A stretch of 64,000 nucleotides of DNA from Streptomyces sp. NBC_01244 (GTDB lineage: Bacteria; Actinomycetota; Actinomycetes; Streptomycetales; Streptomycetaceae): NCBI RefSeq assembly GCF_035987325.1, contig NZ_CP108488.1, positions 9,176,001-9,240,000 of the forward strand, in the 5' to 3' direction. A model generated the notes under the pieces. That model searched no databases. It saw nothing but the letters and a program-made list of their open reading frames with translations, and was not told the origin of the DNA. Shown here one piece after another: positions 35,888 to 62,975 of the stretch. The position numbers were made by a program, and so were the translations under genes. The first letter of the stretch is position 1; every line of letters starts with the position of its first letter.

Positions 35888-36436
35888 ATGTCCCGCATGC
35901 ACCTGCTCGCCGCGCCCGTACTGGCGGCCGGCCTGGCATTCGTCGCCGCGCCGAGCGCGAGCGCTGCCACCACCGCCACCATCAGCAAGGCCGAGTACGA
36001 CCTGATCAAGATCGGCACCACCACGGCCAAGATGCACAGCATCGCCGACAGCGGCGCCTGCAAGCTCAAGAGCCGTGACGACTCCGGCGGCATTGCCTAC
36101 CGGCACTACGAGTGCAAGGGCAACAAGCCCTACAGCAGCGCTACGTTCGACTTCGTGAACGGCAAGCTGGAGATCAAGGGCCAGGTCCTCCTCGACGGCC
36201 TGGAGTCCAACGGCAAGATGACCAAGACCAAGTACGGCAAGATCAAGGTCGGCAGCACGATCAGCCAGATGCACGAGATCGCCGGCAAGGGCACCTGCGT
36301 GCGCGTCGTCCAGTCCCAGTCCCGTACCGACAACATGGCGATCTACGACTGCGAGCAGGCCAGCACCTTCGGCGTCGCGAGCTTCTTCTTCGACAACGGC
36401 AAGGTCACCTCGCGTAACCAGGCGGGCCTTCGCTGA
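35888..36436 (+). CDS. Secreted BLIP-like protein
   Basis: A 182-aa secreted protein: signal peptide to about residue 27 (ending SASAAT), then two tandem roughly 75-aa repeats (YDLIKIGTTTAKMHSIADSG and YGKIKVGSTISQMHEIAGKG), each with one Cys pair and ending in a strand plus NGK turn. This is the two-repeat architecture of the beta-lactamase inhibitory protein family of Streptomyces. ATG 35888 has a G-rich ribosome-binding site. Whether it inhibits a beta-lactamase is not visible, and no beta-lactam cluster is near. Confidence 0.75.
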   Translation: MSRMHLLAAPVLAAGLAFVAAPSASAATTATISKAEYDLIKIGTTTAKMHSIADSGACKLKSRDDSGGIAYRHYECKGNKPYSSATFDFVNGKLEIKGQVLLDGLESNGKMTKTKYGKIKVGSTISQMHEIAGKGTCVRVVQSQSRTDNMAIYDCEQASTFGVASFFFDNGKVTSRNQAGLR

Positions 36437-36558: not shown

Positions 36559-37578
36559 CTACGCAGCCCGGAACGGATCGCGCACCAGCGAGAGCACCTG
36601 CGAGGCGTGGTGGAAGTCCTCGCGGGTGTGGACCTGGGAGAGGAGAACGGTTCTGACGCCGAGGGACAGATACCGCCCGAGGTAGTCGGCGACCCTGCCG
36701 TAGCTGCCGACCAACAATGGGGCGGAGGCCTTTCCGCTGCGGTAGAGGCCGGTCCAGTAGACGTCGTCGTACAGATCGCCGTCCGTGGCCAGATGCGCCA
36801 TGCGTCGGCTCCAGTCGGACTCCGACCCGCGCTTGAGGACCGTCTCGATGTGCGCCGCCCGGTCCACGGGATAGGCGGCACGCGCCGCCCGCCAGGCCTC
36901 GTCGTCGGTGGTGCGCGCCAACAGGCCGAGGCGCACGCCGAGTTCCAGCCCCTTGTCTCGCCACTGCAGGAACTCCGGGGCGAAGCTCGTGACCGGCTCC
37001 GGGTGCGTGACGGACACGTCGCCCACCCGCAGCGCCACCGCGCGCCCCGCCTCGGAGGAGCCGGCCACGAACACCCGCGGCAACCGCTCCTCGGCGAGCC
37101 GGGAGTGCAGGTGCAGTTGCCGATAGCGGTAGTGGGCGCCCTCGTGGTCCAGGGGTTCGTCCGTGCGCAGCAGCCGGGCGACGACGTCCATGTACTCCGC
37201 CGCACGTTCGTAGCGCGCGTCATGCGGGGTCGCGTCGCAGACCTGGGCCAGCTCGCCTCCGGACGAGCCGATGATCAGGTTGACGTCGAGCCGCCGCCCG
37301 TACAGCTCCGAGAGGCTGTGGATCGCCTTGGCCGCGCTGAACGGGGGCGCCGCATAAGGCTGCAGCGCGACCAGCGGGGCGAGCCGCTCGGTGTGCTGCA
37401 GCATCACCGCGGCCATGACCCACGGGTCGTAATTGCGGTGGTCGTAGAAGGTGAGCAGCCCGTCGAAGCCGCTCGCCTCGGCATGCCGGGACAGCGCCCC
37501 GAGCTCCGCGAGGGTGCTGCGGCCGCCGCTCGGATGCGGCTGGTACGCCGTTCCGTACACGCTGAAGTCGTACGTCAT
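36559..37578 (-). CDS. Luciferase-like (LLM) flavin/F420 oxidoreductase
   Basis: A 339-aa TIM-barrel oxidoreductase of the bacterial luciferase/F420-dependent family, with GFDGLLTFYDHR, LAPLVALQPYAAPPFSAAK, RRLDVNLIIGSSGGEL, RVFVAGSSEAGRAVA and a C-terminal LGVRTVLLSQVHTRED. Last gene of the five-gene minus-strand operon; its ATG overlaps the MFS stop (ATGA). Within the cluster it is the best candidate for oxidising the carrier-bound or released product. Flavin versus F420 cannot be settled by eye. Confidence 0.88.
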   Translation of the reverse strand: MTYDFSVYGTAYQPHPSGGRSTLAELGALSRHAEASGFDGLLTFYDHRNYDPWVMAAVMLQHTERLAPLVALQPYAAPPFSAAKAIHSLSELYGRRLDVNLIIGSSGGELAQVCDATPHDARYERAAEYMDVVARLLRTDEPLDHEGAHYRYRQLHLHSRLAEERLPRVFVAGSSEAGRAVALRVGDVSVTHPEPVTSFAPEFLQWRDKGLELGVRLGLLARTTDDEAWRAARAAYPVDRAAHIETVLKRGSESDWSRRMAHLATDGDLYDDVYWTGLYRSGKASAPLLVGSYGRVADYLGRYLSLGVRTVLLSQVHTREDFHHASQVLSLVRDPFRAA

Positions 37579-38825
37579 GGAGCGGCCTCCCGGCGCTGGA
37601 GTGTGCGGATCGCGGGGACGCAGAGCAGGGTCACGCAGCTCGCGGTGCAGATGAGGACGCCGATGAAGAGCGTCTCGCGGGCGCCGATCATCAGGGCCAG
37701 CGGACCTGCCAGGGCGCGCCCGACGGGATTGGTCATGATGGAGCCGGCGACGTCGTAGGCGTACACCCGGTTCAGGGCCTCGGGGCGCACCTGGGTCTGG
37801 ACCGTGGTCGTCCACTGGACCCCCCAGAAGGTCCAGCAGGCGCCCGCCACGCCGAAGCAGCAACTGATCGCCCACACCGGCAAGTCGGCCACCAGAGCAA
37901 GCGGATGCAGCGCGAAGCCGAACATCGCCACGGAGCCTGCGGCGAGCGGGCGCAGTGGACGCAGCCGCATCGCGATCAGGCCGCCGACCACCGTGCCCGC
38001 GCCGAGCACGGCTTGGACGGTGCCGAAGCCTGACGATCCGTACTCGTCCACCAGGACCGTGGCGGTGAGCGGTCGGGCCGGTCCCCACACGAGGAGTCCG
38101 TTCACGGCCCACACGAGGATGACCGCCCAGAGCCAGCGTCTGGACCGGAACTCGTACCACCCCTCCTGCAGGTTCTGCCACATTCCGGCGGCCTTGGTGC
38201 TCACCGGCGGCGCACCGATCCGCAGCAGTTGAAGGAAGACCATGCTGACCGCGAACGTCGCCGCGTTCACACCGAAGACGACGGCCGCACCGAACGCCGC
38301 GACCAGAACGGCCCCGAGCGCCGGACCGAGCAGGGAGCCGACGGCCTCCGCGATGCGCAGCGCGCCGTTGCCGCGCTGTACGTCCCTGGCGACGAGCGGC
38401 ACGATGCTGGACACGCCCGGCTGGAACATCGCCGTCGCCGAACCGCTGATCACGGCCAGGACCAGGATCGGCCCGAGCCCCGGGTCGCCCGCGGCGAACA
38501 GGGCGGCGAGCAGGAGATGGACCGCGAGCCGTACCGCGTCGGCGCCGATCATCATGCGGCGTGCGGTGAAGCGGTCCGCGAGCACCCCTCCGAAGATGAC
38601 GAACAGGGCCTCGGGCGCGATGAAGGCCGCCATCACATAGCCGACGCCGGCCACGCCGTGTCCGAGCCCGAGCACCGCGACGGCGAGCGCCACCGGGAGC
38701 ATCTCGTCGCCGAGCCGTGAGGTGGCGCGTGCGACGAAATACTTGATGAACTCGCGCGTCCACAAAGGCTGTTGGGCGACCCTGGTCGGCTCCTTGGCGA
38801 GGGCCTCCTCGGGTTCCGTGCTCAC
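37575..38825 (-). CDS. MFS transporter, probable product exporter
   Basis: A 416-aa protein with about 12 hydrophobic helices, matching MFS_3/enterobactin-exporter-like transporters (EnfS/MefA type). Landmarks are SRLGDEMLPVALAVAV, the GGVLADRFTARRMMIGAD loop and FQPGVSSIVPLVA. GTG 38825 overlaps the nucleotidyltransferase stop, and its own stop overlaps the LLM start. Its place inside the carrier-protein operon suggests export of the end product. Confidence 0.88.
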   Translation of the reverse strand: MSTEPEEALAKEPTRVAQQPLWTREFIKYFVARATSRLGDEMLPVALAVAVLGLGHGVAGVGYVMAAFIAPEALFVIFGGVLADRFTARRMMIGADAVRLAVHLLLAALFAAGDPGLGPILVLAVISGSATAMFQPGVSSIVPLVARDVQRGNGALRIAEAVGSLLGPALGAVLVAAFGAAVVFGVNAATFAVSMVFLQLLRIGAPPVSTKAAGMWQNLQEGWYEFRSRRWLWAVILVWAVNGLLVWGPARPLTATVLVDEYGSSGFGTVQAVLGAGTVVGGLIAMRLRPLRPLAAGSVAMFGFALHPLALVADLPVWAISCCFGVAGACWTFWGVQWTTTVQTQVRPEALNRVYAYDVAGSIMTNPVGRALAGPLALMIGARETLFIGVLICTASCVTLLCVPAIRTLQRREAAP

Positions 38826-39976
38826 TGATGCGGGATGGTCGAGGACCCCACGACCTGCCCACGGCGGTCGGGGTCGAACAACCGGTCCAGGAACGCGGTG
38901 GTCCAGCGTCCGGCCTTGCCGTCGAGTTCCCCGTACTCGTCGAGGTATCCCAGGTCGTCCGGACGCAGGGACTCGGCGAGGGACTCGGGGACCGCGTCCG
39001 GGTACAGCCGACGTGCGAACGCGAGCGCGAAGTACACCTCGCGTTCGGCGCCCGACCGCGAGGCGAGCGCGGTGAATTCCTTCGCCGCCCCGCTGTCCAT
39101 GAGCCGCACCGACTCCGCCACGTCGAGGAACCGCTGCAGCGTGATGTCCTTGCCGCGCTCGATGCTCAGGTGACTGGTCGCCTCCTTGTACAGATGCAGG
39201 CACACGTCCAGGAGGTGATCGGCCGGCGCGAGCGCGCGGGCGTCGGTGCCGCACATGCGCAAGGGCACGGAGCGGTCGAGGAGCGTACGGGTGTCGGCAG
39301 CGCCCCGGGACTTGCGCTGAAACAGGTTCAGGCACAGGTCGACTTCGAAGAAGTCGACGTCCGGGTCGGAGGTCGGCTTCTTGAAGGGCAGCTTGTTGTT
39401 CAGGTGCATCGACCAGAACGCGCGGGTGGAGCGGGCGTACGGGGTGATGACGGCGCCGTTGGCCGAATGCAGCCCCTGCGCGTAACCGAGTTCGGACAGG
39501 ACCCCGCTCACCTCGGGGAAGGACTCCTCCTCGATCAGAAGGTCCAGGTCCGCCATGCGCCGCGTGCCCGCGTCGTCGTACACCGTGTGACACAGGACGG
39601 GGCCCTTGCGCACGGCGTGACGGATGCCCGCCCTGCCGAGGTCGTGGAAGATCCGTCGGAACTCGCCGAACAGGGCGCGGTTGCGACGGGAGTTGGCTTC
39701 GTACGCCGCGACGTAGATCCAGGGGTAGGGGATCAGTACACCGTCCTCCTGCGGCTGCCACACCCGCGAATACTGCAGGTTGCGGCCGATCAGCGGGACG
39801 ACGTGGTGACGCAGGGCCTGGTCGAGGAAGTAGGACCAGTCCAATTCCCGTTGCCCGGTGAGGATGTGGCGTGCCAGGGCGTCCGCCTCGTCGGACCAGC
39901 GCGGGGTGGCCAGGGTGTGCAGGAGCCGGGCTTCCGGGCGCAGCGCTTCCAGCCCGGTGGGTGCTGTCGAGGTCAT
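38822..39976 (-). CDS. Nucleotidyltransferase family protein (NTP_transf_5-like)
   Basis: A 384-aa protein resembling the uncharacterised nucleotidyltransferase family found in RiPP and NRPS clusters. The core is GIRHAVRKGPVLCHTVYDDA followed by RRMADLDLLI (metal-binding Asp pair) and later VDFFEVDLCL (third acidic residue); a helical C-terminal half follows. It overlaps both operon neighbours by 4 nt. It may adenylylate or otherwise nucleotidylate an intermediate; none is proven for this family. Confidence 0.78.
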   Translation of the reverse strand: MTSTAPTGLEALRPEARLLHTLATPRWSDEADALARHILTGQRELDWSYFLDQALRHHVVPLIGRNLQYSRVWQPQEDGVLIPYPWIYVAAYEANSRRNRALFGEFRRIFHDLGRAGIRHAVRKGPVLCHTVYDDAGTRRMADLDLLIEEESFPEVSGVLSELGYAQGLHSANGAVITPYARSTRAFWSMHLNNKLPFKKPTSDPDVDFFEVDLCLNLFQRKSRGAADTRTLLDRSVPLRMCGTDARALAPADHLLDVCLHLYKEATSHLSIERGKDITLQRFLDVAESVRLMDSGAAKEFTALASRSGAEREVYFALAFARRLYPDAVPESLAESLRPDDLGYLDEYGELDGKAGRWTTAFLDRLFDPDRRGQVVGSSTIPHQ

Positions 39977-40875
39977 GTGGCCGCTCCGATGCCGAGGCGG
40001 GTGCGCAGAGAGGCGGGCCACTGGCCCGGCTTGGGGCCGTGGCGGTGGACCAGGGCCAGCGCGAGACGTTCGTATCCGAAGGCCGCGCAGGCGGTGTGCC
40101 GCGGTGTGCCGGCTGCGTCGGTGATGCGGAACAGGTCGCCGAAATGGTCCTTGTGGTAGTTGAACGAGGCCACGGCCTGGCGCTGTCCGGGAGCGACCTC
40201 CAAGGAAAGCTCCCATTTCAGCTCCTGCTGGCGCTGGGTGGCGCTCATCATCCGGTGGACGGTACCGAAGAACGGGTCGTTCGCGAGTTCCCGCTCGGGC
40301 GTCAGGCCGAGGCCGGTCAGCCAGTCGCCGGCTCGCTCCAGCCATCCGTCGCGCCACACCACGCAGTCCTCGGCGGCGCCGATTCGGACGAACTCGCGCA
40401 TCCGGAAGGAGCGGAAGCGCCCTGGTTCATTGCTGCCCTCCTGCCGGAAACAGGTGGCCTCCACGCTGTGCTCGCAGGCGGAGGTCACCGCGGAGTCCTG
40501 GTAGAGCGGGTAGAGGCAGTAGCAGCCGGCCGGCAGGAGGACCAGGTCGGAGACCTCGAGCAGGCGGTGCCAGCTGCTGCCGGGCCCGGACGAGGTGACC
40601 CGGTCGGTCCACTCCTCGGAGGTTCCGTCGAAGCGGTGGACGGTACCGAGCAGGTTGGGGAACGTCTCCACGTATCCCGACTGCTCGATGACCGAGCGGG
40701 CGATGACCGGCGGGGTCCGCAGTGACCGGGCGTCGTCGAGTCCGCCGAGTGCGGTGAGCGAGGCCCGAAGGCCGTCGACGATCCGCTCGAAGTGGCCGGA
40801 GTAGAGCAGGACGCCGTCGGCTGCGGTGGTGGTGAGGAGGTCGGGTGGGGTCACGGTGCGGTCGGGTGAGGTCAC
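39973..40875 (-). CDS. Amino acid:[carrier protein] ligase, class II aaRS-like
   Basis: A 300-aa catalytic core resembling atypical seryl-tRNA synthetases without a tRNA-binding domain. It shows class II motif 2 (ATCFRQEG, then RFRSFRMREFVRIG) and motif 3 (CAAFGYERLALAL). Cys and Glu residues are placed as in the zinc site of the family (GCYCLYP, SVEATC, HTACAAF). Established relatives activate a small amino acid and load it onto the phosphopantetheine of a separate carrier protein. That partner is the directly upstream gene, overlapping by GTGA. The amino acid cannot be read here; Gly or Ala are family precedents. Confidence 0.88.
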   Translation of the reverse strand: MTSPDRTVTPPDLLTTTAADGVLLYSGHFERIVDGLRASLTALGGLDDARSLRTPPVIARSVIEQSGYVETFPNLLGTVHRFDGTSEEWTDRVTSSGPGSSWHRLLEVSDLVLLPAGCYCLYPLYQDSAVTSACEHSVEATCFRQEGSNEPGRFRSFRMREFVRIGAAEDCVVWRDGWLERAGDWLTGLGLTPERELANDPFFGTVHRMMSATQRQQELKWELSLEVAPGQRQAVASFNYHKDHFGDLFRITDAAGTPRHTACAAFGYERLALALVHRHGPKPGQWPASLRTRLGIGAAT

Positions 40876-41186
40876 AGCACCTCACCGCTTTCGCGTTGCA
40901 GGTCCAGGACGGTCCGGGTGAGGCTGTCGATGCTCGCGAAGACTTCCATGGTCAGCTTGCCGTCGGGGAACTCGACGGCGAAGGTCTCTTCGAGAGCCAC
41001 CAACACCCTGACGCTGGCAAGAGAGTTCATGCCCGCGTGCCAGAGATTGTCGTGTGTGGCCAGCTCCTGGACCGTGTCGCCCAGACCTGAGGCGATCTTC
41101 AGGATTCCTCTGACTTGCTCGGCCAAGGCCTGCTCGGGCAGGGCTTGTTCTGCCGGCATTTGTTCTGCCGGGACTTGCTCTTCCAA
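40872..41186 (-). CDS. Amino-acyl carrier protein
   Basis: A 104-aa carrier protein starting at TTG 41186, six bases after GGGAG. The first 24 residues are a repetitive acidic stretch (EQVPA, EQMPA, EQALP, EQALA). The carrier fold follows with the phosphopantetheine serine at about residue 55 in LWHAGMNSLASV, where Asn replaces the usual Asp. EETFAVEFPDGKLTMEVFAS is typical of carriers paired with amino acid:CP ligases. First gene of the operon, overlapping the ligase by 4 nt. Confidence 0.85.
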   Translation of the reverse strand: MEEQVPAEQMPAEQALPEQALAEQVRGILKIASGLGDTVQELATHDNLWHAGMNSLASVRVLVALEETFAVEFPDGKLTMEVFASIDSLTRTVLDLQRESGEVL

Positions 41187-41656
41187 AGCTGTCTCCCGTC
41201 GGGGATGAGCGCAGGACGAAGGGAGCGGATACGCGACCGGGCGTACCGCTGCCGTGAACAGGAACGAGATGAAAGGTGCAGGTGAATCGGTCCGCGGGCG
41301 CAGCACTGGGCCGACGGACCTGCCCCCTGGTCGCTACCGACTGCCGTGACGAGGCTTCGCACATCGGCCCGTGTGGTTGCACGTCCACACTGATCCGCCG
41401 ACGGGTTGCGGACCGGGCCGGGCCTCGACGAGACAGGGTCGGGGACTGACGGGGCGTTACGGTTGCAGACCGGTGAGCACGGTGTCAACCACCTTGATCA
41501 CAGTGACTCATTACGGCCGACGTGGCCACATACTCGTGGATCAAGGCCTGTTGACATGCAGGGATCACGCCTGGAAACGTTCGATCCACCTCGCCTCGCC
41601 TCGCCCCGCCGGCGCCGTGCAGACGTCTCCCCACCGATCCCGTCAGGGGGCCCGCC
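41187..41656. promoter_or_regulatory. Divergent control region of the biosynthetic locus
   Basis: About 470 bp between the carrier-protein operon and the condensation gene, with no convincing gene. It holds near-inverted copies of a CCTTGATCAC element (about 41490-41545), and TTGACA at 41551-41556 facing the condensation gene, a possible -35 box. Bidirectional promoters are expected here. Confidence 0.5.
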
Positions 41657-42991
41657 ATGGCGCAGTTCTTCCCGCTGTCCGAGGAACAGACCAGCCTGCT
41701 CTTTCTCGACCGGCTCTTCGGACCCGGCATCTTCCACAACAACAACTACACGCTGCGGCTCGACGCCGAGACCTTCCCGAAGGTGTCGTACGACGACGTG
41801 CGCGCTGCGGTCACGGACCTCCTCGAGTCCCAGGAGGCCCTGCGCACCGGGCTGGTCGCCGGCTCCCCCTTCGTGCAGGAACTCGGGCCGCCCGAAGCAC
41901 ACTTGACATCGCGGACCGTCTACGACGAAGCACCGTCGGCGTACACGGATCGCCGCGCCGGAGAGCTGCACAACGCGGAGCTGCATCCGCGCGAGGTGCC
42001 CGCCCGGGCCCGTTTCGAGTACGCCGAGGACCCGGCGGGGCAGCACAAGGCCCTGCTGATCGCGACCGACCATCTGGTCTCCGACGGCATTTCCTCCGGT
42101 CTCGTGCGTTCCCGGCTGCACGCGTATCTGCAGGCCCGCCAGAACGGCGAGAAGCCGCCCGCGTCGGAGCCTGCGGGCTATGCGGCACTGTGCCGCGACC
42201 GGCATCCGGGCACCGAGGCGCAGGCACGGGAAGTAGCACACTGGAACCGGAAGTTGGGGAATGTCGAACCGCTGCGCGGCCTGGCCGCGACGCCCCGGGG
42301 TGATCTGCAGCGCACCCAGGTCGACCGCGGCACCGCCGGGCCCGCGCGGTACGACGAGGTGAACCTGCTGACCGGCCGGTACGAGGCGTCACCGTTCGCT
42401 GTTGTCGCCACCCTGGTCGGCTGCGCCCTGTGGCGCCGCACCGGGCGGCGCAGGTTCCTGCTGCACACGCCCATGTCGACGCGCCGGGACGAGAGCGCAC
42501 AGGCGGCCGTCGGCTATTTCGTCAACGACCGGCCGGTGCTCTGCGAGGTCGACCCGGACCAGCCGCTCGCCGACGCCTTCCGGGCCATGATGGCGGCCGC
42601 CTGGAACGCAGGCCGGCACTCGACGCTCTCGGTGCCGCGGCTCGCAGCCGAAGTCCCCGCGTACGGCGCTTCGTTGCTGGAGCCCGGCATCGACTACGTA
42701 CAGCTGCACGTGTGGATGTCGCAGGTGCCGTCCAACCGGTACCGGGGGCCCGTCGACTGGCGAGAGGAGATCGTGCACGGGCCGTTCAGGCCGGCGCGGG
42801 ACCTGCGGGTGACGACCCTGCGCTACCGCTTCTGCCCGCAGGAGACCTTCGACCGGACGTTCTTCGCAGGGCCCGCAGACGGCATCCACGAGGCGACGGC
42901 GGTGAGCGACGACGTACTGACACTGTTGCGGGCCGCGGCCGGCACCGAGGTGAGCACCATCGGTGCGCTGGCGCAGACCTTGCGGAGCTGA
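41657..42991 (+). CDS. Free-standing condensation domain protein
   Basis: A 444-aa NRPS-type condensation domain without attached modules. It starts FPLSEEQTSLLFLDRLFG, has the catalytic motif in IATDHLVSDGISS (xHxxxDG, second His kept, first His replaced by Asp), and contains LLHTPMSTRRDESAQAAVGYFVND near the middle. Such enzymes join an acyl or aminoacyl thioester on a carrier to an amine or alcohol. The likely donor is the amino-acyl carrier protein divergently encoded. ATG 41657 has AGGGGG upstream. Confidence 0.9.
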   Translation: MAQFFPLSEEQTSLLFLDRLFGPGIFHNNNYTLRLDAETFPKVSYDDVRAAVTDLLESQEALRTGLVAGSPFVQELGPPEAHLTSRTVYDEAPSAYTDRRAGELHNAELHPREVPARARFEYAEDPAGQHKALLIATDHLVSDGISSGLVRSRLHAYLQARQNGEKPPASEPAGYAALCRDRHPGTEAQAREVAHWNRKLGNVEPLRGLAATPRGDLQRTQVDRGTAGPARYDEVNLLTGRYEASPFAVVATLVGCALWRRTGRRRFLLHTPMSTRRDESAQAAVGYFVNDRPVLCEVDPDQPLADAFRAMMAAAWNAGRHSTLSVPRLAAEVPAYGASLLEPGIDYVQLHVWMSQVPSNRYRGPVDWREEIVHGPFRPARDLRVTTLRYRFCPQETFDRTFFAGPADGIHEATAVSDDVLTLLRAAAGTEVSTIGALAQTLRS

Positions 42992-43109
42992 AGGGGGAGA
43001 TCGCAGGGGGCTGAGGCGTCCGCGGGCTTCGCGGCTCCCCTCGCCCTCGGCGGTGTGACGGGAGCCGCGCGTCCAACGGGTGAGACCTCACGCGGCGGGC
43101 GGCCCCGAC

Positions 43110-44432
43110 ATGGCAACATCCGGTGCGCGAACCGTTCCCCCCGACACCCGCACCGGAGCGCCCGCCGTGACGATCGTCGAAATCCCCGGGTCCAAGTCCC
43201 TCACCGCCAGAGCCCTGTTCCTGGCCGCGGCGGCCGAGGGCACCTCGACCCTGCTGCGACCGCTGCGCTCGGACGACACCGAGGGCTTCGCCGAAGGCCT
43301 TGCCGCCCTCGGCTACCGCGTCGAGCACACGCCGGGCCGCTGGCTCGTCGAGGGATGTCCGGCCGGCCCGCCGCGGGAGGAGGCCGACGTCTACTGCCGC
43401 GACGGCGCCACCACCGCCCGGTTCCTGCCCACACTGGTCGCGGCCGGGCACGGCAGCTACCGGTTCGACGCCTCCGCCCAGATGCGCCGCCGTCCCGTGG
43501 CCCCGTTGACCCGTGCGCTGCGCGCGCTGGGCGTCGACGTCCGGCATGCGCGGGCCGACGGGCACCATCCGCTGAGCATCGTCGCCGACGGCGTCAAGGG
43601 CGGTGAACTCGCCCTGGACGCGGGGGAGTCGTCGCAGTACCTGACCGCACTGCTGATGCTCGGACCGCTCACCCGCGAGGGGCTGCGCATCACCGTCACC
43701 CGCCTGGTCTCGGCTCCGTACATCGAGATCACGCTGGCCATGATGGCTGCCTTCGGGGCGACGGTGGAACGCAGGCCGGAGCCCGACGGAGAGGTCTTCG
43801 ACGTGCGGCCCGGCGGCTACCGGGCCACCGAGTACGCGATCGAACCCGATGCCTCCACCGCGAGCTACTTCTTCGCCGCCGCGGCGCTCACGGGCCGGGA
43901 GGTCACGGTCCCCGGCCTGGGCCGAGGCGCGCTCCAGGGCGATCTGCGGTTCGTCGAGGTTCTCCGGCGGATGGGGGCGGAGGTACGCGTCGGGGATGCC
44001 GGCACGACGGTGGCAGGCACCGGGAAGCTGTGCGGGATCACGGTCAACATGCGGGACATCTCCGACACCATGCCCACGCTGGCGGCGCTCGCCCCCTTCG
44101 CCGGAGGGCCGGTCCGGATCGAGGACGTGGGCAACACCCGGGTCAAGGAGTGCGACCGGCTGGAGGCCTGCGCCGAGAACCTGCGGGCGATGGGTGTCGA
44201 GGTCGCGACCGGGCCCGACTGGATCGAGATCACCCCGGGCGCTGTGAGGCCGGTCGAGATCGCCACCCACCACGACCATCGCATCGCGATGTCCTTCGCC
44301 GTCGCCTCGCTGCGCGTGCCGGGCATCACCTTCGACGACCCCGGGTGCGTGCGGAAGACGTTCCCCGGCTTCCACGAGGCGTTCGCGGCCCTGCGCGCGC
44401 AGTGGCAGGCGACGGATGGCGACGTCGGCTGA
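43110..44432 (+). CDS. aroA: EPSP synthase paralogue with altered PEP loop
   Basis: A 440-aa 3-phosphoshikimate 1-carboxyvinyltransferase. Residues that hold shikimate-3-phosphate are present: Lys29, Ser30, Arg34, Ser174-Ser175-Gln176, Tyr204, Asp319, Asn342, Lys346, Arg350, Arg391, Lys416 (by alignment with E. coli AroA from memory). The PEP/glyphosate loop, LGNAGT in most enzymes, reads CRDGAT (residues 96-101), so Asn94 becomes Asp and Gly96 becomes Ala in E. coli numbering. A GTG at 43167 with GGAG upstream is an alternative start. Its place in a biosynthetic locus suggests a second copy for supply or self-protection. Confidence 0.85.
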   Translation: MATSGARTVPPDTRTGAPAVTIVEIPGSKSLTARALFLAAAAEGTSTLLRPLRSDDTEGFAEGLAALGYRVEHTPGRWLVEGCPAGPPREEADVYCRDGATTARFLPTLVAAGHGSYRFDASAQMRRRPVAPLTRALRALGVDVRHARADGHHPLSIVADGVKGGELALDAGESSQYLTALLMLGPLTREGLRITVTRLVSAPYIEITLAMMAAFGATVERRPEPDGEVFDVRPGGYRATEYAIEPDASTASYFFAAAALTGREVTVPGLGRGALQGDLRFVEVLRRMGAEVRVGDAGTTVAGTGKLCGITVNMRDISDTMPTLAALAPFAGGPVRIEDVGNTRVKECDRLEACAENLRAMGVEVATGPDWIEITPGAVRPVEIATHHDHRIAMSFAVASLRVPGITFDDPGCVRKTFPGFHEAFAALRAQWQATDGDVG

Positions 44433-44479
44433 GGATCACCGCGCCGGCTGAGGATCACCGCGTCGGCTGAGGATCAGGA
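44426..44479. repeat. 19-bp tandem repeat spanning two stop codons
   Basis: Three copies, starting at 44426, 44445 and 44464, of a unit beginning CGGCTGAGGATCACCGCG. The first copy carries the AroA stop (TGA) and the third the Nudix stop (on the other strand). Each unit offers stops to both genes. Confidence 0.85.
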
Positions 44480-45085
44480 CGTCAACTCCCCTTCGTAACA
44501 CCGGATCAAGGTCCGTACGGCATACGTCGCCATGCGCCGGGGCGGGTCTCCGAGCAGCTCGGACAGCGGCAGCCAGACCGCGGCCACGCCCTCGTCGTTG
44601 AGCGCGATCTCCGGCTCGGCCGGCAGGTCCAGCAGGTAGGTGTGCCAGCGATGGGCGTCCGCGCCGCGGCGGCAGGAGTCGCCGGGGATCGGGTCGTCGC
44701 CGAGGTGGCGAAGGGTCCCCCCGGTGATACCGGTTTCCTCCCGGAGCTCGCGCAGCGCGGCCCGGTGCGGGTCCTCGCCGGGGGCGACGTGGCCGGCCGG
44801 CACGGTCAGCGCGAAGGGGTAGGCGGTCCGGTCGAAGAGGAGGAACCGGGGGCCGGGGACCCGTACGAAGACGCCGGACGTCTCGTGCCAGTACTCCCCG
44901 TCGGGCTCGACCCACCAGTGTGCCTCGGGGTCGACGACCAGGGCGCGTTCGGCCCGGTGCCCGCAGGCGCGGCAGACACAGCTGCGGCGCCCCGCGTGCT
45001 CTTCCCAGTGGACCGCTTCCGCACGACAGGTCAGGCAGTACTCGTGCCGCAAACCGTCGTCCAGTGGCCGGAAGTTCAGTTTCAT
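44474..45085 (-). CDS. Nudix hydrolase with N-terminal zinc ribbon
   Basis: A 203-aa protein. Residues about 15-45 form a zinc ribbon (YCLTC and SCVCRACGH). The Nudix box is complete (GHVAPGEDPHRAALRELREE, then TGI), so it should cleave a nucleoside diphosphate-X bond. ATG 45085 has GGAGCGG upstream. Convergent with AroA and inside the biosynthetic locus, it may remove a nucleotide or pyrophosphate group from an intermediate, or be housekeeping. Confidence 0.88.
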   Translation of the reverse strand: MKLNFRPLDDGLRHEYCLTCRAEAVHWEEHAGRRSCVCRACGHRAERALVVDPEAHWWVEPDGEYWHETSGVFVRVPGPRFLLFDRTAYPFALTVPAGHVAPGEDPHRAALRELREETGITGGTLRHLGDDPIPGDSCRRGADAHRWHTYLLDLPAEPEIALNDEGVAAVWLPLSELLGDPPRRMATYAVRTLIRCYEGELTS

Positions 45086-45400
45086 CACCGCTCCGATTGT
45101 TTTCCCGGCCCGGCTTCCCCCGGTGGCCGGGGCCAGTGGGGCGCCGGACAGTGTGCCATGGAATTCGCCCCGCACCCCGCCGCGTCCTGGGAATTGGTTT
45201 TCCCAATTTGCCCAAAACTCCCGCATGGGGTGACCCCCTCATGACCCCCCATAGTCCCGCACCTGGGCCGATCCGATTGCGGATCCAACGATTCCGATTC
45301 ATCTCATTCTCCGAGACGCAAGAAAGCGGCTATTTACAAGCCACCTGGTACGGACCTAGAGTCCGATGAGGCGCCGGCGGGGCGTCCGAGTTCAGAATCA

Positions 45401-45423
45401 CAGATTCCTCGTTGAGGAATCTG
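45401..45423. promoter_or_regulatory. Perfect 10-bp hairpin upstream of kinase gene
   Basis: CAGATTCCTC-GTT-GAGGAATCTG, unusually AT-rich for this window, about 90 bp upstream of the kinase start. The 425-bp gap 45086-45511 holds no gene. It also contains CGGAC-N5-GTCCG near 45352 and ATTGG-N5-CCAAT at 45193-45207. Operator or leader hairpin. Confidence 0.6.
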
Positions 45424-45511
45424 AACCTTGGTTCTCGCCTTCCCTCACGAGAGCCGCACAGCGAACCGGTCAGCTTTTTCAGAGACGGAACAGTTCACTA
45501 GGGCGGTGGAA

Positions 45512-46180
45512 GTGCGCGCACAGAAATACCCTGCGGGCGAAAGATCCAGAACCGGGCGGCTCGTGGCCGTGGTGGGTCTGGACGGGGCCGGCAAGTCGAC
45601 CCAGGTGCGAATGCTCGGGGAATGGCTCCGCTCCGTGGGCGTTCCGGGCCAGGCTCATCAGAGCGTCACCATGGCGCCCGTACGCAAGGCCCTGACCTCC
45701 ATGGCTCAACAGGAGGGACTCAAGGACCACTTGGAGCTCATCGGCGGCGACACCATGCGTCTCGTCTCCGCCTGTTCCAAATTGGCCCGGGTCGCCGCGC
45801 TCGAGGAGACCCTCATGACGTCCCCCGACGTCGTGGTCGTCGACCGCTACACCTACTGCCAGTACGCCCTGGCCAAGGCGCAGGGCACCGGCAGCGTCGA
45901 CTTCCTGCGCCGGCTCTTCGAGGGAGCGCCCGAGCCGGACCTCACGATCTTCCTCGACGTCTCCCCGGCCGAGGCCGTGCGCCGCATCGACGTGCGCGGA
46001 ATCGATGAGGAGAGCCCGGAGTTCCTCGAGGCCTTCAGGGCGGCTTATGTCGACCTTCCCGAGTTCGCCGGATTCGTCCCGGTCCCAGGTGATGGCGATT
46101 TCGAGGCAGTGCAGCTTGCAATGAGGCAGGCCATTGTCGTCGCATTCCCTGAGATTTTCGTCGCCGCTTCGACCGCCTGA
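45512..46180 (+). CDS. Thymidylate-kinase-like P-loop enzyme
   Basis: A 222-aa nucleoside-monophosphate-kinase-like protein. The P-loop is VVGLDGAGKSTQVRML, the DR motif is VVVDRYTYCQYALAKAQG and the Walker-type strand is PDLTIFLDVSP. GTG 45512 is preferred on spacing from AGGGCGG; GTG 45506 is also in frame. Similarity to Tmk is clear at the P-loop but the middle region is divergent, so the substrate may not be dTMP. In this cluster it could phosphorylate an intermediate. Confidence 0.8.
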   Translation: MRAQKYPAGERSRTGRLVAVVGLDGAGKSTQVRMLGEWLRSVGVPGQAHQSVTMAPVRKALTSMAQQEGLKDHLELIGGDTMRLVSACSKLARVAALEETLMTSPDVVVVDRYTYCQYALAKAQGTGSVDFLRRLFEGAPEPDLTIFLDVSPAEAVRRIDVRGIDEESPEFLEAFRAAYVDLPEFAGFVPVPGDGDFEAVQLAMRQAIVVAFPEIFVAASTA

Positions 46181-46447
46181 GCGTGCGGCGTCGGCTTCTT
46201 CTGTCCTTTCTGCACGCGCTTTACGGTCCGTGTCCAGCTGCCCGCATATCCGTGCGGGCCGGCCGGCGCGCACGCGCCGTGCACTCATTCCCGTACCTCT
46301 TGAGCAGATTTCCCCTGCGCATTTCCCGGTGAGCAATCGGACATACGCGCAGCAGGGTGCGCTTTCCCGTGCACACTCCCCGTGTGCTCCTCCGGCACGC
46401 CTCCGTCCCGGAGCGGCCGCCTTCTCTCAGCCCAAGGAGAATCCACC

Positions 46448-47200
46448 ATGCCCAGCTTCCGCAGCGCTTCCATCGAGGACGGGATGTTCAGCCGGACCGA
46501 CACCTGCCACATGCACGTCGACGCGGGCGGCTTCGCCGCGGCGGCGGCGCTGGCCGAGATGATGGACGTCAAGCACGGGCTCGCCTGCAAGGCGGTACCC
46601 GTCGTCGCCCTCACGAGCGGCCCGCAGCGGGACGACTCCCCGGACGCCTACGCCGAGCACCACCCCGCCCACGACGAGGACCCCGACGCCGACTCCTTCG
46701 CGTCCGCCTATCTGGGCGACACCTCCACCCTCGGCAAGGCGCGCTCGGTCCTGGAGTCGATCTACGCGACGCACCCGACGGCGGTCGTCGAACTCGAGCA
46801 AGTCGTCTTCGACGTGAACTGGGCGGGCGAGGTCAGCGCGGTCGAGGAGGAGGCGCCCGCGGCGCGGATCGAGCTCGCCGGCGCACGGCAGATCACCCCG
46901 CACGTGCCCTACGAGTACCACCACGGATTCAACCTCGACCGCAGCGGTCCCCTGCCGGACCTGGCCGAGCTGACCCGCCAACTGGCTGACAGCGGCGTGC
47001 CGTTCGGAAGCATCTACGTCTTCGATCGCGGTGACCAGGTCGCCTACCGCACCAACTGCTTCCTGGCCACCGCCGACCACGACCAGTTGCTGAAGGAACG
47101 CCAGACCACCATCGACGTCGTGTCCCACCTCATCGGCCAGGACGTGCTCGTGAAGACGGTCCTCGAGCGGGTCGTCGGAATCTGGCAGCCGAAGAAGTAG
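46448..47200 (+). CDS. Unrecognised protein of the biosynthetic locus
   Basis: A 250-aa soluble acidic protein without signal or membrane segments, preceded by a strong AAGGAG site. I do not recognise the family. Visible features are an N-terminal FSRTDTCHMHVDAGGFAAAA, a His/Asp-rich loop at about residues 60-85, and a C-terminal FGSIYVFDRGDQVAYRTNCF followed by a long helix. It sits between the kinase and the PEP-binding barrel, so it is probably a pathway component. Confidence 0.75.
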   Translation: MPSFRSASIEDGMFSRTDTCHMHVDAGGFAAAAALAEMMDVKHGLACKAVPVVALTSGPQRDDSPDAYAEHHPAHDEDPDADSFASAYLGDTSTLGKARSVLESIYATHPTAVVELEQVVFDVNWAGEVSAVEEEAPAARIELAGARQITPHVPYEYHHGFNLDRSGPLPDLAELTRQLADSGVPFGSIYVFDRGDQVAYRTNCFLATADHDQLLKERQTTIDVVSHLIGQDVLVKTVLERVVGIWQPKK

Positions 47201-47206
47201 CCGCAG

Positions 47207-47241
47207 CGGTGGTGGCGGCGCACGTCGAGCCGCCACCACCG
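47207..47241 (+). terminator. Intercistronic 13-bp hairpin
   Basis: A perfect stem (47207-47219 with 47229-47241), 9-nt loop, between the unrecognised gene and the PEP-barrel gene. It may end transcription partly or stabilise the upstream mRNA. Confidence 0.6.
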
Positions 47242-47279
47242 GAACACTCTCCATGAAGCCAAAGGAGTTGAGGACTCAG

Positions 47280-48563
47280 ATGCGGGAACCGGTCCAGGAC
47301 TGGTCCGACGCGTACTTCGCGCATCCGCAGGACATCCATGGCCGGACCGTCCGGGTCGAGGTCGACGCACCGCTGTACGAGATCGCCCACCTGTGGCGGC
47401 ACGGCGCAAGCGCCCTGGAGTTCCGGGGATCCGTGGCCGCCGCCCACGCCCGGACCCTGTGGGAGGAGATCGGGCCCTGGGGCGCCGACGGGGCCGCCTC
47501 CCCGGGCATCGCGACCGCTGACGGGCGGCCCGTGCTGGTGAACGCCTGCACGGAGGCGGGGTTTCGTCGCGCCGCCGCGGCCGGGGCGGCGGGCGTCGGG
47601 CTGGTGCGCGGCGAGTTCCTCTTCGCGCTGGCGGTCGCCACGCTGTTCGAGGAGAAGTTCGACGACGGCAGCACGGTCCTCGAATCCCTGAGCTCGGAAG
47701 GCGATTTCGCCACGCTCACCAGACTGCTGCACACCCCCGAACTGTGCACCCTGCTCGGCCGGCCCATCGCCGCGGCGCTCGACGCCGCGGGCTCGGCGTT
47801 CCCGGCCGGTGCCCCCGTCTTCGTACGGCTCTTCGACTTCGGTGATGCCTACACCTCGCAGGGCGGCCCGCGCGGCACCGCGCTCCTGCTCGAAAAGCTC
47901 CCCGAAGCACTCGATTTCCTCGCCCGGATCCTGTGGGAGGTGCAGAGCAGGCACACCGTCCGCTTCGTTCTCGCACCGCCGATGGTCTCGTCCTACGCCG
48001 AACTGACCTCAGTGCTAAGCCGACTGGCACGCATCGGCCTGTCACCCGCATCGGGCGACTCCGCGGCCACCGGTCAGCCGGGCTTCGGCTGGGAGGTCGA
48101 GACACCGGCCGCCGCGCTGTGCACCGGACTGTGGGCGGACCATCTCCTGCGCGAACACCGTCTCACCCCGGCGGTCTGCGGCATCGGCACCAACGACCTC
48201 ACCCAGTTCACGCTCGCCCGCGGGCGCCGGACCACGCCGTCAGCGCCCGGCCGGCCCGAGGCCCACCCGGCGGTCCTCGCCCTGCTCGCCAGGCTGGCCG
48301 CCGACTGCCAGGACCGTGGCATCACCGCGGTCCTGTCGGGTGCGGCCGCCGAGGACAGCGGCTATCGGAACTTCGGGGACTCCCTCGGCCTGCTCGCCTC
48401 CTGCACCCCGTACGCACTCTTCGAGGACGCCGGGGCCGAGTCGGCCGCCATCCTCGAACAGGCCGTCTCCGTCGACGCCCTGCCCGGCGTGGGCGGACTG
48501 CCCGAGGTCATCGTGTGGCGCCGCGTGACGGCACACACCTGCACGGGGGACCGGCATGGGTGA
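47280..48563 (+). CDS. PEP-binding TIM-barrel protein, enzyme I/PEP synthase C-terminal-like, Cys missing
   Basis: A 427-aa protein resembling only the PEP-binding barrel of PTS enzyme I, PEP synthase and pyruvate phosphate dikinase. Conserved are GVGLVRGEFLF (Arg110), FVRLFDFGD (Arg183), the metal Glu in WEVETPAAAL, GIGTNDLTQFTLARGR (Asn305, Asp306, Arg316). The catalytic Cys of the CGE motif is Ser353 (AVLSGAAAED). The phosphohistidine and ATP-grasp domains are absent, so it cannot run the normal phosphotransfer cycle. ATG 47280 is favoured by a nearby GAGGA; 47253 is possible. A new PEP- or enolpyruvate-handling role is inferred. Confidence 0.75.
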   Translation: MREPVQDWSDAYFAHPQDIHGRTVRVEVDAPLYEIAHLWRHGASALEFRGSVAAAHARTLWEEIGPWGADGAASPGIATADGRPVLVNACTEAGFRRAAAAGAAGVGLVRGEFLFALAVATLFEEKFDDGSTVLESLSSEGDFATLTRLLHTPELCTLLGRPIAAALDAAGSAFPAGAPVFVRLFDFGDAYTSQGGPRGTALLLEKLPEALDFLARILWEVQSRHTVRFVLAPPMVSSYAELTSVLSRLARIGLSPASGDSAATGQPGFGWEVETPAAALCTGLWADHLLREHRLTPAVCGIGTNDLTQFTLARGRRTTPSAPGRPEAHPAVLALLARLAADCQDRGITAVLSGAAAEDSGYRNFGDSLGLLASCTPYALFEDAGAESAAILEQAVSVDALPGVGGLPEVIVWRRVTAHTCTGDRHG

Positions 48564-49464
48564 CGGGCCCGGCTTCCTTACCCTCGCGCCCGGCGTCCTC
48601 GCCGTCCGCTGCCCGAAACCGCACAGCCACACGGGAATGGTCAGCATGGTGGTGGCGGACGGCGGCCGGCTCGCCGTCATCGACACCGGCATGCGCGAAC
48701 ACGCCCTGGCCGCACTGCTCCCGGCGCTCGGAGCCCTCGGCGCCCGCCCGCAGGACATCGCGATCCTGTGCGCGACGCACGGCCACGCGGACCACGTCGG
48801 AGGGTGCGGCCCGCTGCGCGAACTGACCTCTGCCGCCGCCTGCTTCTCCCCTCTGGACGCCGAACTCGCGGGCGCCGTACCGGACCTGCCGGCCCGGGCC
48901 GGCCAGGTGATCGACCTCGGCAGCCTCCGCTTCGAGGTCCTGCCCACACCCGGCCACACCCCCGGCAGCAGCTGCTTCTACGAACGCTCGCTGCGTCTGC
49001 TGATCGCCGGGGACGCCGTGCAGAGCAGGGGTTCGGCCGGCCGGCTGCCGGTCTACTACGACTCGGGCCGCGACTACCGTGCGAGTCTGCGCGAACTGCT
49101 GCGCATCCCGGTCGAGACCCTGCTCACCGGACACCCCCTGCGCGGGCCCGGACTCGAAGGATGCATCCACCGCGGAACCGACACATGCCGGGAGTTGCTG
49201 ACCATGAGCCTCGGGTACGCGCAGTCCGTGGAGCGCGCGGTCGCCACGGGAGTACGCGTCCTCACGGACGACCCCGCCGAACCCCTGCACTTCCCCACGC
49301 TGCGTAGGTTCGTACTCGACGAACTGTCTCGCGAACCCCTTTACGCGGAAGCGGAGTTGACGTCCGCCGAACTGGAGGAGGACGAAGACGTCACAGCCAC
49401 GCTGCTCAGCGAGACGAGAGACCTCGGGATCCTGCTGGAGGCCGCCCCTTCCGTACGGCGGTAG
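48556..49464 (+). CDS. Metallo-beta-lactamase-fold hydrolase
   Basis: A 302-aa MBL-fold protein with the metal motif ATHGHADHVGG, a further His in LPTPGHTPGSSCF, Asp in IAGDAV and a C-terminal His in LLTGHPLRGPG. This resembles the glyoxalase II-like branch more than true beta-lactamases. The start overlaps the upstream barrel gene by 8 nt, so they are co-translated. Thioester or lactone hydrolysis, for example release from a carrier, is a reasonable guess. Confidence 0.88.
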   Translation: MGDGPGFLTLAPGVLAVRCPKPHSHTGMVSMVVADGGRLAVIDTGMREHALAALLPALGALGARPQDIAILCATHGHADHVGGCGPLRELTSAAACFSPLDAELAGAVPDLPARAGQVIDLGSLRFEVLPTPGHTPGSSCFYERSLRLLIAGDAVQSRGSAGRLPVYYDSGRDYRASLRELLRIPVETLLTGHPLRGPGLEGCIHRGTDTCRELLTMSLGYAQSVERAVATGVRVLTDDPAEPLHFPTLRRFVLDELSREPLYAEAELTSAELEEDEDVTATLLSETRDLGILLEAAPSVRR

Positions 49465-49519: not shown

Positions 49520-49557
49520 TGGGCAGGCCGGTCTTCATGGTGGTACCCGTGCGGAGC

Positions 49558-50247
49558 TCAGCGGCCGAAGGTGTCGATCCCCTCCACGAGCCAGTGTCCG
49601 TCGCGGTCCACCAGGTCGAGGGCGAGCATCGCGCCCGCGTACACGCCTTGGTTCTGGGGGCTCTGCTTCTCGGTCCCGGCCGTGCTCACGCTGCTCTGGT
49701 CGGCGTAGACGAGGACCCGCGCCCGGTCGCCGTCGATCCGCTCGACCGCGCTGTCCGTGACGGCAGTGGTGATCACCGTCTTCTGCTTCTCGGCCTGGGC
49801 GAGGATGTCGCCGAAGAGCGCCCGGTGCTGGGTGACGGCCTTGCCCGTGAGCAGGGTCTTCGTCGCGCTCTCGAAGGCGGCGGGCTTCGCGTGGTCGTAG
49901 GAGAAGAAGGAGGCGACGGCCTTGGCGGTCTGTCCCTTGATCTCGCTGGTACGGGCGAGGTCGGTGAGCGCGGTGTTTGCGCGCACGGGATCGCTCCGCA
50001 GTGCGGAGGCCCGGCTGTGGGCGAATCCGGCGAAGGCACCGAGCAGGACGGTGAGCGTACAGAGGATCAGGAGGGGGGTGAGGTACTTCTTTCCGCCCCC
50101 GTCCGTGCCGTCCACCCCGGCCCCCCCGGCCGACTCCGGAGCCTCCTGCCGCTGCGCGTCGTCGGTCGCGCGCGCCGCGGGGACCGGCTGGTTGCCGACG
50201 GCCTGGCGGCGGCGCTGGCGGTTGATGAGGTGGCGGGTCGTCGACAT
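49558..50247 (-). CDS. Mce-associated membrane protein (Mas), fourth
   Basis: A 229-aa protein: a basic, disordered N-terminus, one membrane helix (YLTPLLILCTLTVLLGAFAG) and an outer NTF2-like domain. It is the usual shape of the Mas proteins encoded behind actinobacterial mce genes, thought to stabilise the lipid-import complex. Last gene of the operon, separated from the previous one by 49 nt with its own GAGAGG site. Confidence 0.85.
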   Translation of the reverse strand: MSTTRHLINRQRRRQAVGNQPVPAARATDDAQRQEAPESAGGAGVDGTDGGGKKYLTPLLILCTLTVLLGAFAGFAHSRASALRSDPVRANTALTDLARTSEIKGQTAKAVASFFSYDHAKPAAFESATKTLLTGKAVTQHRALFGDILAQAEKQKTVITTAVTDSAVERIDGDRARVLVYADQSSVSTAGTEKQSPQNQGVYAGAMLALDLVDRDGHWLVEGIDTFGR

Positions 50248-50296
50248 CGTGCGTGTCCTCTCGGGTCCGGGCGGCTTGCGCGGTACGGCGGGCCGG

Positions 50297-50863
50297 TCAG
50301 CCGGACGCCGTACCGCCCACGGGGGCCTGGCCCAGCGCGCTGAGCTTCCAGTGGCCCCCGGTGCGGGTCAGTTCACCGAGCATGCGGCTGTCCTTGTCGC
50401 TGCTCTTGTCGTCGGCCGCCTTGACCGTGATGCGCAGGGCGACCAGCACCCGGGCCCGCCCTGCCCGCTCGTCCAGCTCGGTCACGGCGCCCGACAGCAC
50501 CCGGGCCGTCGTCACGGTCTTCGCCGCCTTGACCTGACGCGTGAACTCCGCTCGTCCCTGCACGAGCTGGTCGTGCAGGTCGCCGGTCGTGGACGACTCC
50601 CACAGGTCGAGGCCCTGGTCCACCTTGGCGTGGTCCAGGGTGTTGAGGTTCTGCACGGCCTGTTCCGCCGCCGTGAGCACCTGGTCGCGCTGGGCGGCGT
50701 ACGCGGCGGACTCGTCATGGCTTGCCCCGTACCAGTCCTGGGCCGCCCACGCGGCGAAGCCGCCCGTGAGGAGGGTGAGCCCGAGGGCGGCGGCCAGGAT
50801 CGGCCGGGTGCCCGTGCGGGCTCGGACCGTGCGTGTCATGAGGCGCTCTTCTCTCCCGCTCAT
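50297..50863 (-). CDS. Mce-associated protein (Mas), third
   Basis: A 188-aa protein with one N-terminal helix (LAAALGLTLLTGGFAAWAA) and an outer domain with the Mas pattern (LNTLDHAKVDQGLDLWESS, then LRITVKAADD). The start at 50863 lies three bases after the previous stop; 50839 is an alternative. Related in sequence to the first Mas protein (LNTLDAS), so the group arose by duplication. Confidence 0.82.
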   Translation of the reverse strand: MSGREERLMTRTVRARTGTRPILAAALGLTLLTGGFAAWAAQDWYGASHDESAAYAAQRDQVLTAAEQAVQNLNTLDHAKVDQGLDLWESSTTGDLHDQLVQGRAEFTRQVKAAKTVTTARVLSGAVTELDERAGRARVLVALRITVKAADDKSSDKDSRMLGELTRTGGHWKLSALGQAPVGGTASG

Positions 50864-50866
50864 CTC

Positions 50867-58986: not shown

Positions 58987-58987
58987 C

Positions 58988-59794: not shown

Positions 59795-59799
59795 CGGCC

Positions 59800-61571: not shown

Positions 61572-61713
61572 ACCACCTCCAGCAGGAGTGTGCCGCGAGT
61601 GCGTCTCGGGCCGCACGTTAAGTCGTTCACGATCACCGGGACAATAGGTGTGACACCGATTCGGCCCGGCGCCCCGGAATTTGTCACCGCGTGGACAAAT
61701 CCGGGTGCGTCAT

Positions 61714-61773: not shown

Positions 61774-62947
<1,174 letters not shown>

Positions 62948-62954
62948 GGCGTGC

Positions 62955-62975
62955 GGGAGTGTCGCCGACACTCCC
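62955..62975 (+). terminator. Terminator of secreted-protein gene
   Basis: GGGAGTGTC-GCC-GACACTCCC, a 9-bp perfect stem with a 3-nt loop, seven bases after the stop. Confidence 0.7.

What the first reader, a model, noticed from the sequence alone, without database searches (positions are those of the whole stretch)
36559..49464. Compact undescribed biosynthetic locus built on a carrier-bound amino acid and PEP-related enzymes
Seen: 12 genes combining an amino acid:carrier-protein ligase, its carrier, a free condensation domain, an LLM oxidoreductase, an NTP_transf_5-like protein, an MFS exporter, an EPSP synthase paralogue, a PEP-binding barrel, a Nudix hydrolase, a Tmk-like kinase, an MBL hydrolase and an unknown protein. 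Known: aaRS-like ligases load amino acids on carriers, and condensation domains use such donors. Inference: a small aminoacylated or nucleotide-linked metabolite is made and exported. I know no characterised cluster with this gene set.
Basis: partly seen in the sequence, partly recalled or inferred. Interest (0 to 1): 0.9.

Follow-up and report, generated by a model that had tools for sequence, protein, structure and literature searches.

The report
Two-part PEP and aminoacyl gene cluster
A Streptomyces-like locus joins a very rare five-gene set built around phosphoenolpyruvate, including a close relative of a glyphosate-tolerance enzyme, to an amino-acid-loading operon, and may make an unknown small molecule.

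Summary
All twelve genes exist and read as described. The locus is two cassettes. The plus-strand set (Tmk-like kinase, unknown protein, PEP-binding barrel, EPSP synthase, MBL hydrolase) recurs in only one other genome found, Saccharothrix sp. NRRL B-16314. There it stands alone, with no ligase, carrier or C-domain gene seen within about 9 kb upstream and 6.6 kb downstream. Single genes of the left operon (carrier, aa:CP ligase, NTP_transf_5, MFS, LLM; four 4-bp overlaps) have relatives elsewhere, without the plus-strand set. The EPSP synthase is a Class IV enzyme, related to the S. sviceus enzyme (PDB 7m0o), with motifs intact and no accelerated branch. It therefore probably still makes EPSP. 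The PEP barrel keeps PEP-site motifs but has Ser where the catalytic Cys stands, and lacks a phosphohistidine domain. Relatives of the NTP_transf_5 protein often sit in carrier-protein clusters, some of them phosphonate clusters; no PEP mutase signature was seen in the host. Best reading, moderate to low confidence: a natural-product locus whose PEP cassette makes a PEP-site metabolite, EPSP synthase being the protective copy, and whose left operon adds an amino acid and exports. Not shown: product, joint function, resistance role.

The parts
36559..37578 (-). LLM (luciferase-like) flavin monooxygenase, alkanesulfonate-monooxygenase-like
   Evidence: PF00296 132 bits; TIGR03565 122 bits, far below its cut-off 518
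37575..38825 (-). MFS exporter
   Evidence: PF07690 93.8 bits, PF05977 62.8 bits
38822..39976 (-). NTP_transf_5 nucleotidyltransferase-like protein, acidic motif present
   Evidence: PF14907 135.5 bits; ADLD stretch; relatives in carrier-protein and phosphonate clusters
39973..40875 (-). Amino acid:carrier-protein ligase (class II aaRS-like)
   Evidence: Bll0957/3mey E=8.3e-65; NF005479 298 bits, cut-off 357
40872..41186 (-). Carrier protein, phosphopantetheine serine in GMNS
   Evidence: PF00550; NF005480 76.5 bits over cut-off 72; motif
41187..41656 (.). 470-base divergent intergenic region between the two transcription units
41657..42991 (+). Free-standing condensation domain, DHLVSDG motif
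   Evidence: PF00668 68.4 bits; motif
43110..44432 (+). Class IV EPSP synthase; substrate and PEP motifs intact
   Evidence: TIGR01356 397.5 over 287.25; 7m0o E=4.6e-200; motifs
44474..45088 (-). Nudix hydrolase with two CxxC motifs (open frame to 45226)
   Evidence: PF00293 62.4 bits; Nudix box and CxxC; not found in the Saccharothrix locus
45506..46180 (+). Tmk-like P-loop kinase, conserved module gene
   Evidence: PF02223 70.5 bits; below dTMP kinase cut-off (60.8 vs 83.25); 65% to Saccharothrix
46448..47200 (+). Unknown His-rich protein, conserved module gene
47253..48563 (+). Free-standing PEP-binding barrel (PpsA/PPDK/EI type) with Ser at the catalytic Cys position
48556..49464 (+). MBL-fold metallohydrolase, HGHADH motif
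   Evidence: PF00753 93.3 bits; B3/glyoxalase II-like chains; motif

Best explanation
The locus is a natural-product cluster of two cassettes. The plus-strand cassette (kinase, unknown protein, PEP barrel, MBL hydrolase) turns PEP or its enolate into a small PEP-site metabolite. The barrel binds PEP but, lacking the proton-donating Cys and the phosphohistidine domain, uses the enolate for bond formation instead of making pyruvate (inferred). The Class IV EPSP synthase still makes EPSP (strongly implied) and serves as the tolerant copy that protects the producer (inferred). In the left operon the ligase loads a small amino acid on the carrier (reported for homologues), the C-domain passes it to the metabolite, LLM and NTP_transf_5 tailor it, and MFS exports it (inferred).
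For: The five-gene set is conserved as a run in a second genus. A lone EPSP synthase accompanies it in both genomes, whereas the two other same-group EPSP synthases of this genome sit with chorismate synthase and other shikimate genes. It scores 668.8 bits against the S. sviceus enzyme 7m0o and shares its CRDGATTARFLP segment; DGT-28, described as glyphosate tolerant and Class IV, I take to be that enzyme. Its end branch (0.033) is no longer than that of the free copy in G074 (0.054), so no sign of a new acceptor. PEP-site motifs are kept, with Cys replaced by Ser in both barrels. CP and NTP_transf_5 relatives recur in carrier-protein clusters. The ligase resembles Bll0957. The left genes overlap by 4 bases; the C-domain gene is divergent from that operon and 118 bases before EPSP. 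In sister genome G074 the matching sequence starts at window 49539, 75 bases after the MBL stop.
Against: Class IV EPSP synthases occur in more than 100 of 392 Streptomyces, and none of 15 contexts examined shows the module, so the enzyme alone is no resistance marker. The Saccharothrix copy keeps Gly where Class IV has Ala. The left operon and the module have not been found together elsewhere. The window EPSP gene is the closest relative of a free copy in G074 (93%), so its place here could be recent or accidental. Product and reactions are unknown; the barrel model has pLDDT 52.
Confidence: 0.33

Rival explanations
1. The EPSP synthase is a biosynthetic enzyme: it makes EPSP (perhaps with the Tmk-like kinase acting on shikimate or an analogue), and the PEP barrel takes the enolpyruvyl group onward to a new bond, as EPSP is proposed to donate an enolpyruvyl group to arsenate in bisenarsan biosynthesis.
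For: Kinase, EPSP synthase and a PEP-binding barrel sit in one run in Saccharothrix. A review proposes that BsnM (EPSP synthase) transfers the group from EPSP to arsenate (passages). PEP-site motifs are kept in both proteins.
Against: No phosphoglycerate-mutase-like or phosphonopyruvate-decarboxylase-like gene is in the locus. Intact motifs and a short branch argue against a new acceptor. No test that the kinase uses shikimate.
Confidence: 0.3
2. Two independent gene sets happen to lie side by side: an aminoacyl-carrier operon with its C-domain, and a separate PEP module with its own product or a metabolic role.
For: The module stands alone in Saccharothrix. No module gene was seen in 13 ligase loci. 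A Nudix gene on the other strand separates EPSP from the other module genes, and 417 bases separate Nudix and the kinase.
Against: C-domain and EPSP are 118 bases apart on one strand, and the C-domain gene is divergent from the ligase operon. Only one other module-bearing genome is known, so absence of linkage is weak evidence.
Confidence: 0.27
3. A carbon-phosphorus or carbon-arsenic compound is made: the barrel replaces PEP mutase and the NTP_transf_5/Nudix pair adds and removes a nucleotide handle.
For: NTP_transf_5 and CP relatives lie in clusters with PEP-mutase-family genes in 4 of 9 loci, with the EDKxxxxxNS signature seen in 2 of 2 checked. The barrel shares the PEP/pyruvate-type fold of EI, pyruvate kinase and CLYBL.
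Against: None of three PEP_mutase-family loci of the host genome checked has the signature. The Saccharothrix module is on another contig than that strain's PEP mutase, and NTP_transf_5 and Nudix were not found beside it. The FR-900098 analogy for a nucleotide handle is recalled only.
Confidence: 0.07

Closest known systems
Class IV EPSP synthase (S. sviceus, PDB 7m0o; DGT-28)
   Same: 668.8 bits over residues 24-429; same CRDGATTARFLP segment; substrate and PEP motifs kept
   Different: Here beside a kinase, unknown protein, PEP barrel and MBL gene; free-standing relatives lie in two other conserved contexts in 12 of 15 loci examined
Amino acid:carrier-protein ligase and carrier (Bradyrhizobium Bll0957)
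   Same: Ligase E=8e-65; carrier over its NCBIfam cut-off
   Different: No acyl-CoA dehydrogenase gene, which sits between ligase and carrier in two Streptomyces relatives; adjoined instead by NTP_transf_5, MFS, LLM and a C-domain
PEP-utilising enzymes (PpsA, PPDK, EI), C-terminal barrel
   Different: No phosphohistidine or ATP-grasp domain found; catalytic Cys is Ser in both copies
Bisenarsan (bsn) cluster
   Same: An EPSP synthase in a specialised-metabolite locus with enolpyruvyl chemistry proposed
   Different: No phosphoglycerate-mutase-like BsnN, decarboxylase BsnJ or PKS in the locus
Phosphonate clusters with NTP_transf_5, carrier protein and FomB-type kinase (loci L074-L076)
   Same: NTP_transf_5 41-44% and carrier protein 36-47%
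   Different: No PEP mutase, decarboxylase or FomA/FomB among the 12 genes

Membership tests
Class IV EPSP synthase | High similarity to the S. sviceus enzyme and grouping with Streptomyces Class IV loci | tested here: met
   668.8 bits to 7m0o; in a clade of 32 rows, support 91/97
Class IV EPSP synthase | Uses shikimate 3-phosphate and tolerates glyphosate | not testable with these tools
   Motifs intact; kinetics need the bench
UMP enolpyruvyl transferase (NikO/PolA) | Divergent acceptor site, radical SAM partner | tested here: not met
   Shikimate-phosphate motifs SSQ and SAPY kept; no radical SAM gene in the locus. NikO features recalled
Amino acid:carrier-protein ligase | Class II aaRS core without tRNA-binding domain, similar to Bll0957 | tested here: met
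   E=8.3e-65 over residues 14-296 of 300
Amino acid:carrier-protein ligase | NCBIfam equivalog cut-off NF005479 | tested here: not met
   298 bits against 357
Amino acid:carrier-protein ligase | Zinc-binding Cys-Glu-Cys | tested here: met
   Cys118, Glu of FRMREFV and Cys263 align with the same residues in Bll0957; their role as zinc ligands is recalled
PEP-utilising phosphotransferase (PpsA/PPDK/EI) | PEP-binding barrel with its Arg, Glu, Asn-Asp residues | tested here: met
   Motifs at 119, 192, 283, 314-315; residue roles recalled
PEP-utilising phosphotransferase (PpsA/PPDK/EI) | Phosphohistidine domain and catalytic Cys | tested here: not met
   Only PF02896 found; Ser362 at the Cys position by profile alignment to 8a8e
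dTMP kinase | NCBIfam equivalog cut-off TIGR00041 | tested here: not met
   60.8 bits against 83.25; a second Tmk-like match in this genome at C1:5363887
PepM phosphonate cluster | PEP mutase with EDKxxxxxNS in the locus or genome | tested here: not met
   None in the locus; not in L083, L089, L094 of the host genome; a fourth, sub-cut-off match was not checked. Signature recalled
Bisenarsan-type arsenic cluster | EPSP synthase plus phosphoglycerate-mutase-like BsnN | tested here: not met
   No such domain among the genes of 36559-49464; whole genome not searched for it
NRPS condensation domain | Active-site His in xHxxxDG | tested here: met
   DHLVSDG at residue 138

The most novel reading that the evidence does not exclude
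The cluster makes a natural inhibitor of EPSP synthase, a biological counterpart of glyphosate, by PEP-enolate chemistry on a repurposed PEP barrel, protects its host with a Class IV EPSP synthase, and attaches an amino acid from an aaRS-like ligase for uptake or delivery.
Probability: 0.15. Interest if true: 0.9.

Novelty: new variant of a known kind. Interest (0 to 1): 0.58.

Why it matters
If the protective reading is right, the cluster would point to a natural EPSP synthase inhibitor. I recall none, and saw none in the listings or the passages. It would also suggest one reason why tolerant EPSP synthases exist in Streptomyces. Even otherwise, a free-standing PEP barrel without Cys and phosphohistidine domain, next to an uncharacterised protein found in two genera, is a new enzyme set for PEP chemistry that can be tested with five genes.

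Tried and rejected
Rejected: nikkomycin/polyoxin-type enolpyruvyl transferase (shikimate-phosphate motifs kept, no radical SAM gene). Rejected as stated: classical phosphonate cluster (no PEP mutase signature seen). Considered: independent recruitment of two EPSP lineages to the module. The tree sets the Saccharothrix copy apart, but the AU test does not reject one clade with the window and G074 (p 0.22) nor with all Class IV (p 0.33), so I do not claim it. Rows left out of the trees: L005, L006, L160, L165 (no match long enough) and L158 (very long branch). Considered: direction of the EPSP move between G000 and G074; G074's neighbourhood is scattered in G000, so undecided.
Full report
The window lies in a 10.0 Mb genome of three contigs, at C1:9176001-9240000, near one end of the 9.5 Mb contig. 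All twelve genes are present. Five minus-strand genes (carrier, ligase, NTP_transf_5, MFS, LLM) each overlap the next by four bases; a divergent condensation-domain gene and an EPSP synthase gene follow, 118 bases apart. Then comes a minus-strand Nudix gene, and then a Tmk-like kinase, an unknown protein, a PEP-binding barrel and an MBL hydrolase.

The unknown protein was the best probe. A scan of 84,980 species genomes returned one relative, in Saccharothrix sp. NRRL B-16314. There the kinase (65%), unknown protein (62%), barrel (52%), EPSP synthase (61%) and MBL (47%) lie in one run of five genes. No relative of the ligase, carrier, C-domain, NTP_transf_5, LLM, MFS or Nudix proteins was found in that 20.7 kb locus at E up to 1e-5. 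A profile search found the unknown protein in 1 of 392 Streptomyces (the host itself) and 1 of 296 genomes of a phylum sample, again the host. The barrel gave, besides the host, 4 of 245 genomes with weak partial matches (19-21 bits). The scan needs an exact short pattern, so rarity is an estimate.

The EPSP synthase is the most informative gene. It passes the AroA equivalog cut-off (397.5 over 287.25). Its closest solved structure is 7m0o (668.8 bits), the S. sviceus enzyme (passages of PMC8983318). The DGT-28 enzyme is described as a glyphosate-tolerance enzyme of a new Class IV in passages of PMC12554703, citing Griffin et al. 2021, whose listed title names a glyphosate-tolerant S. sviceus enzyme. 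I did not read that paper, and equating DGT-28 with 7m0o rests on that title and recall. Substrate motifs are intact. The segment DGATTARFLP is shared with 7m0o and with 29 of 29 Class IV loci checked; the Saccharothrix copy has Gly at the first Ala of that segment. In a survey, 172 of 392 Streptomyces have a match at E up to 1e-90, a count that mixes Class IV with more distant relatives; more than 100 listed genomes are at about 70% identity or more. Of 15 contexts fetched (the two most distant at 68% and 62%), 12 fall into two conserved neighbourhoods (near dxr and an M50 peptidase, or near a GH3 gene), and none of 15 shows a module gene beside EPSP; two show a weak MFS match. The window copy is the sister of a free copy in the close relative G074 (93% DNA; end branches 0.033 and 0.054), so there is no sign of a changed acceptor. 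This genome has two further enzymes of the broader group (51-54%). They sit with chorismate synthase and dehydroquinase in one case, and with DAHP synthase, dehydroquinate synthase and chorismate synthase in the other. The module has EPSP synthase alone, in both genomes. That pattern suits a protective copy, or a pathway that draws on EPSP, better than chorismate supply.

The left operon is a recognisable aminoacyl-carrier set. The ligase aligns over nearly its whole length with Bll0957. The carrier passes its family cut-off. aa:CP ligases load amino acids on carriers (passages of PMC9437257). Ligase relatives occur in 69 of 245 other genomes, the best at 41-47%, and in 60 plasmid records at under 60%. 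In 13 ligase loci examined I saw no relative of NTP_transf_5, LLM, kinase, unknown protein, barrel, EPSP, MBL or Nudix; three had weak C-domain matches (25-28%), one of these also a weak MFS match, and two had a nearby carrier with an acyl-CoA dehydrogenase between. In G128 a distant NTP_transf_5 match (23%) lies about 2.2 kb from a ligase relative, the only such pair seen.

NTP_transf_5 relatives occur in 8 of 245 other genomes, 7 of them at 36% or more. Nine loci were examined. Four hold a PEP-mutase-family gene and a carrier protein related to ours. The mutase signature was present in both of the two checked. Three of the four form one conserved phosphonate cluster; its annotated member L074 has decarboxylase subunits, an amino acid kinase and a FomB kinase at 545.9 bits. 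An adenylating enzyme is next to NTP_transf_5 in L074, L080 and L081 by HMM and in L075 and L076 by family clustering; in L078 an LLM gene is adjacent, and in L079 radical SAM genes. In the window the neighbour is the aaRS-like ligase. NTP_transf_5 proteins thus often sit beside an amino-acid-activating enzyme; their reaction is unknown. Of the host's four PEP_mutase-family matches, the three checked carry no mutase signature; Saccharothrix has one, on another contig than the module.

Boundary: in G074 DNA of 92-94% identity begins at window 49539 and runs to 64000, while the 37 kb of G074 to its left matches nothing in the window at E up to 1e-20. The right edge of the island is thus just behind the MBL gene; the left edge was not found.

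Verdict: real and unusual, best described as two cassettes side by side. That the PEP cassette is a unit is shown by its conservation across two genera. That the EPSP enzyme still makes EPSP is strongly implied. A protective role, joint function with the aminoacyl operon, and the product are inferred.

Noticed in passing
L074-L076 (G113:C388, G127:C19, G020:C21): A conserved phosphonate cluster in three Streptomyces; L074 has PEP mutase, split phosphonopyruvate decarboxylase, PALP and OCD enzymes, adenylating enzyme, carrier protein, amino acid kinase and FomB-type kinase. I did not match it to a known product.
   Followed up: partly
L077 (G104:C1:8101000-8120900): A different PEP mutase locus with a sulfolactate-dehydrogenase-like enzyme, NTP_transf_5, a CobQ-like protein, a carrier protein and a PLP decarboxylase.
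   Followed up: no
G000 whole genome: Eight EPSP_synthase-family matches in one genome, including two in chorismate-supply sets (one on the 300 kb contig) and one on the 187 kb contig beside a sugar epimerase.
   Followed up: partly
window 35888-36436: BLIP (beta-lactamase inhibitor) domain protein with a signal-peptide-like start, just outside the left operon.
   Followed up: no
window 49539-64000: Block matching sister genome G074 at 92-94% DNA identity; its start at 49539 marks an island edge.
   Followed up: yes
L097 (G679:C14:16000-35900): Saccharothrix sp. NRRL B-16314 carries a PEP mutase locus; two neighbouring genes are 52-59% identical to genes of the L075/L076 phosphonate cluster.
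   Followed up: no
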